From an uncultured bacterium (GTDB lineage Bacteria > Verrucomicrobiota > Kiritimatiellia > PWTM01), in the NCBI GenBank assembly GCA_938005705.1, contig CALLML010000003.1, positions 1 through 64,000 of the forward strand: DNA of 64,000 nucleotides, written 5' to 3'. This document shows, in pieces, positions 4,471-49,561 of the stretch (position 1 is the stretch's first letter; every line of letters begins with the position of its first letter). A model generated the notes under the pieces. The model did no database searches, had not been told where the DNA came from, and saw nothing but the letters and a program-made list of their open reading frames with translations. A program made the translations under genes and the position numbers.

Positions 4471-5622
4471 ATGGACGTTCCGGAAAAAACGACGCGGGCT
4501 CGCCGCGTGACGTTGCGGGACGTGGCGATCCTGGCAGGGGCGCATGTCGGTACGGTTTTGAAGGCGTTGGCGGGCGCGGGCGCGATGACGGAGGCGACGC
4601 GGGCGCGGATTCGCGCGGCGGCGGAGAAACTCGGCTACACGCCGGATCCGATGCTGCGGGCGCTGGCGAACTATCGCAACGCGCTGCGCGAGGAATCGTT
4701 TCACGGCACGCTGGCCTGGCTGCTGCTAGACCAGGATCGCGATCCCATCACGGCGCGAACTTTGGCTGCGTTGTGGGCTGATGCAGAGGCAGCGGCCCGG
4801 AAAATGGGATACCGGTTAGAAGCATTTCGTCGGGAGGGCCTTCCGCCGGGCCGATTGGAGGCGATCCTGCGGGCGCGGGGTATCGCGGGGCTTCTCATTC
4901 CGCCGCTGAGATTGCCCGGGCAGTCTCTCGAGATGGACTTCGCAGAATTCGCCGTCGTGGCGATCGGGTCTTCGATCATGGATTCGCGCCCGCACCGGGT
5001 GCAACCCCAACAGTATCTCAATATGCGGCGGCTGCTCCAGGCGCTGCGCGAGCGCGGCTACCGCCGTATCGGTTTCTGTCTGCACCGTCGTTTAGATGAG
5101 CGGACGCAAAGCGCTTACAGCGCCGGTTTTTGGATCGAACAGCGGGCCTGGCCGCCCGCGGAGCGATCGCCTTTGGCGCTGTTGAGGGAGGACGCCGCGG
5201 GCGGAGAGGCGGCCTTTCGAAAGTGGTTCAAGGCCCATTGTCCCGACCACCTGATCGGCATCCCGGGCATTCTCAGCGGCTGGTGTGATGCCGCGGGTTT
5301 TCCGCGGATTCCGATTTCCTTTTTCGGCGACCCGCGTTTCGGGTATCTGCCGGAACAACAGCGGGGCGGAATCTTGATGGACGAGCAATGGCCGATCATC
5401 TGCGCGCGCGCGCTGCGAATGCTCGACGATCAAATCCGGCACGGGGAGCGAGGGCCGACGACGACTCCGATGATTCTGGAGATTCCGGGGGCGCTCACGC
5501 GAGGCGGTCGGAGGATTGTTGAACGTGGGATGTGGGACGTGGGGAAATCGGCGGGCAGGAGACCCGGCTTTGCTGGCGCTACGCCGGGCCAAGCTGTCCG
5601 CCCTATCGGGATTGATGCGTAA
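4471..5622 (+). CDS. LacI-family transcriptional regulator
   Basis: N-terminal HTH RVTLRDVAILAGAHVGTVLKAL..TRARIRAAAEKLGYTPDPMLRALANYR; periplasmic-binding-like C-terminal domain. Confidence 0.8.
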   Translation: MDVPEKTTRARRVTLRDVAILAGAHVGTVLKALAGAGAMTEATRARIRAAAEKLGYTPDPMLRALANYRNALREESFHGTLAWLLLDQDRDPITARTLAALWADAEAAARKMGYRLEAFRREGLPPGRLEAILRARGIAGLLIPPLRLPGQSLEMDFAEFAVVAIGSSIMDSRPHRVQPQQYLNMRRLLQALRERGYRRIGFCLHRRLDERTQSAYSAGFWIEQRAWPPAERSPLALLREDAAGGEAAFRKWFKAHCPDHLIGIPGILSGWCDAAGFPRIPISFFGDPRFGYLPEQQRGGILMDEQWPIICARALRMLDDQIRHGERGPTTTPMILEIPGALTRGGRRIVERGMWDVGKSAGRRPGFAGATPGQAVRPIGIDA

Positions 5623-5651
5623 TACGACCGAAATCCCGCGAAAAATCACGG

Positions 5652-5694
5652 ATCGAATGGGGACGCGGGGCTCGTGGTCCCGCGTCCCTTCCAC
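5652..5694 (-). ncRNA. group II intron domain VI-like hairpin with 3' end
   Basis: Minus strand GTGGAAGGGACGCGGGACCACGAGCCCCGCGTCCCCATTCGAT: 10-bp stem, unpaired A seven nt from the CGAT end, directly after the domain V-like element. Confidence 0.7.
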
Positions 5695-5728
5695 ACCACC
5701 GGACGTGCGGTTTTCCACATCCGGCGGT
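5695..5728 (-). ncRNA. group II intron domain V
   Basis: 34-nt ACCGCCGGATGTGGAAAACCGCACGTCCGGTGGT: 9 bp + 2-nt bulge (CG at 24-25) + 5 bp + 4-nt loop, CGC at positions 3-5 with a G.U wobble, which is canonical DV geometry. Confidence 0.8.
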
Positions 5729-6079
5729 TGAATGACCTGATGCACGTCCCAACCACATGCGCCAGCTTTATCAGACTTGGGCCTCGCGCCCGTTTCCCGA
5801 CCAGAATCCACCGGCTGTTCTTCGGATCGCCGTCGGGGACGGGTCCTTCCAGACCTTGCCCCGCTGTCGATTTGTGGTCCTTTCACCCGATCTTTCGGGC
5901 GTCGTGGTCGTTGTATAACCGTCGTTCTTCGGCCCTTCGCTCCGCTCAGCTTTCACCGGGCGTCTTCGCTTCTACGGTCTCTGCTGACTACAGCCGGTAT
6001 TGGGGCACGACGGCGTCCTCCGCGATGAGCCGTCCCGGTTCGACACATAGGGTATGGCAGTTGGCCATGAAGTAGTAGA

Positions 6080-6614
6080 CGACCACGGGTTCGAGCCGCC
6101 ACATGCGGACGGAAGACCGCGAAATCGAAATCATTGTTGGCGTTCGGAAAATAGGCGATGCCGCCCCGCTCGCGCGCGCAGGTCTCGCAGATGAACGTCA
6201 TCCCGGTGGGCAGCCGCGGGTGGACGGCGATCGCGGACACATCGATGCCGTTGGCGCGCAGCAAATCGCGGAAGGCGCGACCCGGCCCGGTCCAGCCCGC
6301 CGAACCGGTCAGCGCCCAGGTAAGCCGCCGACGGCGACTCGAAGTCCTGCCCGCGCCAGCAACGGCGCCATATTGCCCGGGCCTCCGGCCGTGGCCGAAC
6401 CGCCCACGATCCACACGTCATACTGTTACGGCGAGTAGTTCGGCAGGTCTTCCGTGTGGCACTTGACCAGCCCGCCCGGCCCCACCAGCCGGTCCGCGAA
6501 ATCGAACTCCGGGCGGCGGAGATCGAGCACCAGCGTATTCAAGATGAGCACATCAGCCCGCCGGTTCATGGGGCGCTTCTCCGGACTCCGGAACTCGCCG
6601 ACACGTCGGGACAC
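6080..6614 (-). pseudogene. PfkB-family carbohydrate kinase pseudogene (limits approximate)
   Basis: ADVLILNTLVLDLRRPEFDFADRLV..NYSP, in-frame TAA, QYDVWIVGGSATAGGPGNMAPLLARAGLRVAVGG, frameshift, YLGADRFGG, frameshift, GIDVSAIAVHPRLPTGMTFICE..GGIAYFPNANNDFDF. Confidence 0.7.
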
Positions 6615-6633
6615 GAAGCGATGGCCCGCCGAC

Positions 6634-7440
6634 TCAATCCAGGGCTTCCATCTCGTCCAAATGACTGAGCACTTTGTGGAAGGCCTCAGCCACGCGCAGC
6701 GCCAGTTCCCGTCCGTTGGGCAGACGCAGGGGCATGGTCATGCCCGTGTGCCAGCCGCAATGCTTCGTAGCCACGGGAAACTGGGCAAGGTCATAGGTGA
6801 CGCGGCTGTCGGTGCAGGACCATGGGCAGCCGTCTCCGTAAGCGTTCTTCGCGGCGATCGCCGTCATCTCCGGCAACGGCCACGCCTGCCAGATGCTGGT
6901 TTCAACGCCTTCCGCCACCAGCGCGCGCACCAGCTTGTCGCGAAACTGTCCGGCATCGGGCACGTGTCCCTGGGCCTCCATGTCGAAGCGAACGGTATAG
7001 TTGTAGTAGTTGTGGCCGAAACGGGTGTCGGGGACGGTCGGGCGGATGAGCGCGGGGCAACCTTCCAGCGCCTCGTGCAGGGTGAGCGCGTTTTCGCGGA
7101 TGGTGGCGAGATAGTCGTCTAATCGGGCCAGTTGCGCGCGCACGAACGCGGCAACGAGCTCGGTGCTGCGGTACTTCCACCCCATGCCTTAGGAGGGATG
7201 CGGATCGCCCACCGAAGGCCGGCTGTGCTCGCCGAAATAGTGCAGTTTCCGGCCGCGCTCGAAGAGCTCGGAATCGTTGGAAACCAGAAATCCGCCTTCG
7301 CCGCAGCAATGAATGTTGTTGTGGTTGCAACTGAAGGTCGCCAATTCGCCGAAAGTCCCGACCTCACAACCGTCCGATGCTTCTTCCAAGCATTGCCGGC
7401 CGGGTAACTCGCAGACGGCGTGAAAGTCGTCCCTCCAATG
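6634..7440 (-). pseudogene. DegT/DnrJ/EryC1/StrS-type aminotransferase pseudogene, N-terminally truncated (right limit approximate)
   Basis: CLEEASDGCEVGTFGELATFSCNHNNIHCCGEGGFLVSNDSELFERGRKLHYFGEH..PHPS, in-frame TAA (7186-7188), GMGWKYRSTELVAAFVRAQLARL..; both parts are in the same frame. Confidence 0.7.
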
Positions 7441-49153: not shown

Positions 49154-49434
49154 CAGGCGATTATCGTCCTACGGCCGCGCTCATGACTCGCGGCGCGCGG
49201 CAATAAAGCCCAAAACGGGTTTGCGAGTCAAGCCGTTCGCGAGGGATCGACATGCTCTACCCCCGGACGCAACATTGGCAAACCATACGTCGGCGAAGAA
49301 GGAGGATTGCCGTTGGAGGCAGGTCCTACAGGCTCCGATGCGTTCTTGAACGCATTCGCCTTCAGATACAACCAGCCACGGCAGGCGTGCCGAGTATTTG
49401 ACCGATTGCCGGCAAGCGCGTAAATTCAACTCGA

Positions 49435-49520
49435 GCTCACGGGGTGTCGGACGCTGTTTCGGCCGGCTGAGATCAGACCCGTGGAACCTGAACCGGATCA
49501 TGCCGGCGGAGGGATGGAGC
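49435..49520 (+). promoter_or_regulatory. TPP riboswitch aptamer (THI element)
   Basis: GCTCACGGGGTGTCGG..GGCTGAGATCAGACCCGTGGAACCTGAACCGGATCATGCCGGCGGAGGGATGGAGC: CUGAGA, ACCUGA and GGAUnAUGCCGGCGgAGGGA core elements. Confidence 0.96.
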
Positions 49521-49531
49521 GGCGTACAGCG

Positions 49532-49561
49532 GGCGAAGTCACCTCCGGACTTCGCCTTTTT
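49532..49561 (+). terminator. intrinsic terminator in the TPP riboswitch expression platform
   Basis: GGCGAAGTC-acctccg-GACTTCGCC-TTTTT, perfect 9-bp stem plus U-tract, 14 bp before the thi4 start. Confidence 0.9.

What the first reader, a model, noticed from the sequence alone, without database searches (positions are those of the whole stretch)
5652..5728. Intact group II intron domain V + VI on the minus strand with no reverse transcriptase
Seen: a 34-nt element folding exactly as a domain V (9 bp, 2-nt bulge, 5 bp, 4-nt loop; CGC at positions 3-5 with a G.U wobble), followed at once by a 10-bp hairpin with an unpaired A seven nt before a CGAT 3' end. Known: this DV geometry and a bulged branch-point A 7-8 nt from the 3' splice site are hallmarks of group II introns. 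No RT/maturase ORF or convincing domain I was found upstream (minus strand, ~5.73-6.1 kb). So this is either an ORF-less intron, possibly trans-served by a maturase elsewhere, or a 5'-truncated remnant.
Basis: partly seen in the sequence, partly recalled or inferred. Interest (0 to 1): 0.72.

Follow-up and report, generated by a model that had tools for sequence, protein, structure and literature searches.

The report
Broken remnant of a jumping intron
This is the tail end of a mobile self-splicing (group II) intron that lost its front half and its reverse transcriptase, one of about fourteen mostly damaged copies in this bacterial genome; it is an ordinary genomic fossil.

Summary
The domain V + VI pair at 5652-5728 (minus strand) is real. 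Rfam Intron_gpII matches it end to end (33.9 bits, E = 2e-4, below the gathering score of 40). It recurs about 13 more times in the same genome, and it sits directly behind the reverse transcriptase (RT) of complete introns in related genomes. The element therefore runs 5989-5652, about 338 nt against about 1.9 kb in complete relatives. Domain I and the 5' end are missing, and the RT was lost by internal deletion. At 5990 the intron abuts codon ~232 of a decayed PfkB-type kinase gene whose remaining part is gone. It is a 5'-truncated, RT-deleted remnant, not an ORF-less intron that could splice. Other copies are mostly broken too, and many sit at contig ends because near-identical copies collapsed in assembly, so the lack of an intact RT in this MAG does not show that the cell has none. 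Truncated copies are the usual state of bacterial group II introns, so interest is low.

The parts
5695..5728 (-). Domain V, 34 nt, CGC triad, CG bulge
   Evidence: RF00029 match; aligned copies and complete introns
5652..5694 (-). Domain VI with unpaired A 7 nt from the 3' end, ending CGAT
   Evidence: RF00029 match; fold; covariation
5729..5789 (-). Site of the internal deletion that removed the RT; complete relatives have an open frame of 437-498 codons here
   Evidence: C57 homology ends near 5790 and complete-intron homology resumes at 5732
5790..5950 (-). Domain IV leader just upstream of the lost RT start
   Evidence: 78% identical to C57:3303-3146, where a decayed RT start follows
5924..5989 (-). 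Domain III/IV segment (GTCAGCAGAG...GTAG), 5' limit of the intron homology
   Evidence: RF01998 22.6 bits at 5932-6021; 80-85% identity to four complete introns starting at 5989
5991..6569 (-). Host sequence: decayed, C-terminally truncated PfkB-type kinase pseudogene abutting the truncated intron
   Evidence: tblastn with intact homologues of related genomes covers residues 15 to about 232, with stops and frameshifts

Best explanation
The feature is the 3' end of a mobile, RT-encoding group II intron whose relatives' RTs are closest, among solved structures, to class IIC enzymes. This copy is dead. It lacks the 5' splice site, all recognisable domain I and the RT/maturase, so it can neither splice nor move. 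Most likely an intron copy landed in or beside a PfkB-family kinase gene, either already 5'-truncated by incomplete reverse transcription or cut later by a deletion that also removed the end of the kinase gene, and its RT was lost by an internal deletion. Domains V and VI look intact because decay has not yet reached them, not because they act here. Shown: homology, missing parts, the junction and the multicopy family. Inferred: the order of events and the lack of function.
For: RF00029 match and fold; 13 further places in the same genome; 81-94% identity over 54-87 nt of the domain V/VI stretch, and 80-85% over the domain III/IV piece, to complete introns with an open RT frame; C57 carries the same leader followed by a decayed RT start; no D1D4-3 match upstream of the window copy and no intron 5' end in the window; intron homology starts at 5989 where kinase homology stops at 5991; the kinase C-terminal half is not found in the assembly; RT pieces elsewhere in the genome are all broken.
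Against: Domain V/VI is unusually well preserved for a dead element. RF00029 is below its gathering score, so Rfam alone would not call it. The order of truncation and deletion is not determined. No exact empty site was available for comparison.
Confidence: 0.93

Rival explanations
1. A functional ORF-less intron spliced or moved with a maturase encoded elsewhere in the genome.
For: Domain V/VI fits the model end to end; a multicopy intron family exists in the genome, and reads from further RT-bearing copies may be lost at contig ends.
Against: No domain I: kinase sequence begins 2 nt upstream of the domain III/IV piece, and no D1D4-3 match or intron 5' end is present. No intact RT in the assembly.
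Confidence: 0.03
2. The 3' piece of a split intron that is spliced in trans with a separately transcribed 5' half.
For: Trans-splicing group II introns are known in organelles (own knowledge; listed in PMC4424553). Intron 5' ends exist elsewhere in the genome.
Against: The 5' ends elsewhere belong to their own copies or to contig breaks. The break here abuts a pseudogene in its sense orientation, with no intact 3' exon: about 29 nt downstream the convergent LacI-type gene ends.
Confidence: 0.02
3. Two unrelated hairpins that resemble domains V and VI by chance.
For: The Rfam score is below the gathering cut-off.
Against: 81-94% identity to the sequence directly behind group II RTs in relatives, 13 further places in the genome, compensatory changes.
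Confidence: 0.01

Closest known systems
Complete RT-encoding group II introns of related genomes (L048 = G161, L049/L079 = G221, L077 = Phycisphaerales MAG JADYYE010000180.1)
   Same: Same domain V/VI (81-94% identity over 54-87 nt), same domain III/IV segment (80-85%), same order.
   Different: They carry D1D4-3 and an open RT frame of 457-498 codons; L049/L079 and L077 also show the 5' end GTGYGYCCAGCATGG. The window copy has none of these.
Truncated or inactivated bacterial group II intron copies (reviewed in PMC4424553)
   Same: An inactivated copy with a missing 5' part and a lost RT, in a genome with many related copies.
   Different: Nothing essential; domain V/VI is somewhat better preserved than the rest.
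Bacterial ORF-less group II introns (PMC4424553)
   Same: No RT in the element.
   Different: Those retain a complete ribozyme; this one lacks domain I and the 5' splice site.
GsI-IIC group II intron (RT structure 6ar1)
   Same: The relatives' RT matches it best among solved structures (391 bits); some copies and relatives start just behind a hairpin, as IIC introns do at terminators (PMC4424553).
   Different: Class was judged from the RT of relatives only; the window copy has neither RT nor domain I.

Membership tests
Group II intron (origin of the sequence) | Domain V of canonical geometry with catalytic triad | tested here: met
   canonical shape possible but 2.8 kcal/mol above a bulge-less fold in this copy
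Group II intron (origin of the sequence) | Domain VI with bulged A 7-8 nt from the 3' end | tested here: met
Group II intron (functional) | Domain I and 5' splice site GTGYG | tested here: not met
   No D1D4-3 match in 5400-7200; no 5'-end match in the window; kinase homology up to 5991
Mobile group II intron | Intron-encoded RT/maturase | tested here: not met
   No RT frame in the element; no RVT_1 in the assembly, with positive controls in relatives
ORF-less group II intron served in trans | Complete ribozyme core without an ORF | tested here: not met
Class IIC / class C introns | Class C RT and insertion behind terminator-like hairpins | tested here: inconclusive
   Relatives' RT best matches GsI-IIC; hairpins seen before the 5' end by eye in L077, L079, C57 and C69; no RT phylogeny made; the window copy has no 5' end
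Splicing-competent intron | Ligated exons or lariat in RNA | not testable with these tools
   Needs RNA from the organism

The most novel reading that the evidence does not exclude
The genome hosts internally deleted, RT-less group II introns that keep both ends (such as the 737-nt copy on contig C16) and that multiplied as non-autonomous elements using an RT in trans, the window copy being a further-decayed member.
Probability: 0.1. Interest if true: 0.4.

Novelty: new member of a known kind. Interest (0 to 1): 0.12.

Why it matters
It matters little on its own: it is one decayed copy of a known kind of retroelement. It is a useful caution that a well-preserved domain V/VI does not imply a working intron, and that 'no RT in the genome' cannot be trusted in a fragmented MAG whose intron copies sit at contig breaks.

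Tried and rejected
Rfam at the gathering threshold gave no intron hit in the window; the lower threshold was needed. RF01998 alone gave nothing significant in the whole genome. A first domain V/VI alignment (A1) included a row in the wrong orientation (G005), a distant one (C32) and a badly cut one (G067); it was replaced by A2. The idea that the rest of the kinase gene was moved elsewhere by recombination between intron copies was tested and not supported: no match in the assembly, with the caveat that the assembly is 92% complete. A palindrome seen in the 3' flanks of other copies (GGACGGCTTCCACGCCGTCC) does not occur beside the window copy. An annotation look-up of the Phycisphaerales record failed.

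Full report
Observation. Rfam RF00029 matches it over the whole model at 33.9 bits, E = 2e-4, below the curated cut-off of 40; at the cut-off nothing is listed. The strand folds far better than its shuffles (z = -5.7). Across 12 homologues 90.9% of cells pair, against 35-47% with slid partners, and six pairs change on both sides. A C-to-U change in this copy makes a bulge-less alternative slightly more stable than the canonical shape.

What lies upstream. The low-threshold scan also places RF01998 (group-II-D1D4-1) at 6021-5932, 22.6 bits, weak on its own. Comparison with complete introns supports it: blastn finds 64-70 nt at 80-85% identity to four of them, every match starting at window 5989. 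The stretch 5950-5790 is 78% identical to another copy in the genome, C57:3303-3146, where it is followed by a decayed RT start (MPNEEPTASVTLETVLARENQRAA then a stop). In the window the sequence passes from this leader to domain V within about 60 nt, so the RT was lost by internal deletion.

Complete relatives. A search of 288 genomes of the class with the RT C-terminal fragment of contig C16 found introns with open RT frames, and genome contigs gave one in a Phycisphaerales MAG. In L048, L049 and L077 the order is D1D4-3 (77-95 bits), D1D4-1, an open frame of 457-498 codons, then domain V/VI. In L049/L079 and L077 the 5' end GTGYGYCCAGCATGG is also visible. The RT is a group II RT/maturase by TIGR04416 (384 bits, cut-off 300) and is closest among solved structures to GsI-IIC RT (391 bits). 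Against this plan the window copy lacks the 5' end, the D1D4-3 segment and the RT.

The junction. Three relatives of the same family have an intact PfkB-type kinase in an open frame of 406-421 codons. The window has residues 15 to about 232 of it on the minus strand, with stops, frameshifts and an internal gap, up to 5991; intron homology begins at 5989. The remaining 189 or so residues were seen neither on the far side of the intron nor elsewhere in the assembly. Domain III/IV sequence thus abuts a broken gene, and there is no room for domain I.

The rest of the genome. The window lies in a 2.76-Mb, 149-contig assembly of 92% completeness. DNA search gives 13 further places, 12 of them the domain V/VI end, and an Rfam search adds C32, which is a divergent domain V/VI. 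Ten of 14 domain V/VI copies lie within 700 nt of a contig end, against 7.6% of the assembly (binomial p about 5e-9), and several 5' ends stop 115-133 nt into the intron at a contig end (C24, C33, C69). This is what collapse of near-identical copies produces. RVT_1 finds nothing in the assembly, though the same search finds RTs in three relatives; RT pieces are present in C16, C19, C26 and C87, all incomplete. So 'no intact RT' holds for the assembly and cannot be extended to the cell.

Conclusion. The element is best read as a dead, 5'-truncated and RT-deleted group II intron copy. [quoted passage not shown] The window copy belongs to the first group. Shown: identity, missing parts, junction, multicopy family. 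Inferred: the order of truncation and deletion, and the absence of function.

Noticed in passing
L026 / L100 (G000:C16:23107-23843, minus): A 737-nt intron copy with both ends, a domain I piece, the GIIM domain and domain V/VI but no RT palm: an internally deleted derivative. Near-identical 5' ends recur on C24, C33 and C69 and near-identical 3' ends on C102 and C149, so this deleted form may have multiplied.
   Followed up: partly
L028 (G000:C87) and L029 (G000:C1): Two further RT-less copies with different internal deletions share about 140 identical nt at their contig ends, including a long inverted repeat (ACATCCCCG...CGGGGATGT) and a GGCGCGAGCTTGCTCGCGCC palindrome; the first repeat also occurs on C144 and the second on C63.
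   Followed up: no
L017 (G000:C149) and L033 (G005:C42): 1636 bp are 100% identical between two assemblies placed in different genera, at nearly the same contig coordinates: probably one metagenome contig assigned to two bins.
   Followed up: partly
5' flanks of L077:268, L079:1662, L024 (C57:3459), L104 (C69): The intron 5' end lies just behind a short hairpin in several copies and relatives, as expected of introns that target terminator-like hairpins; seen by eye only.
   Followed up: partly
window 49430-49532 (+): TPP riboswitch, 62.7 bits, above its gathering score.
   Followed up: no
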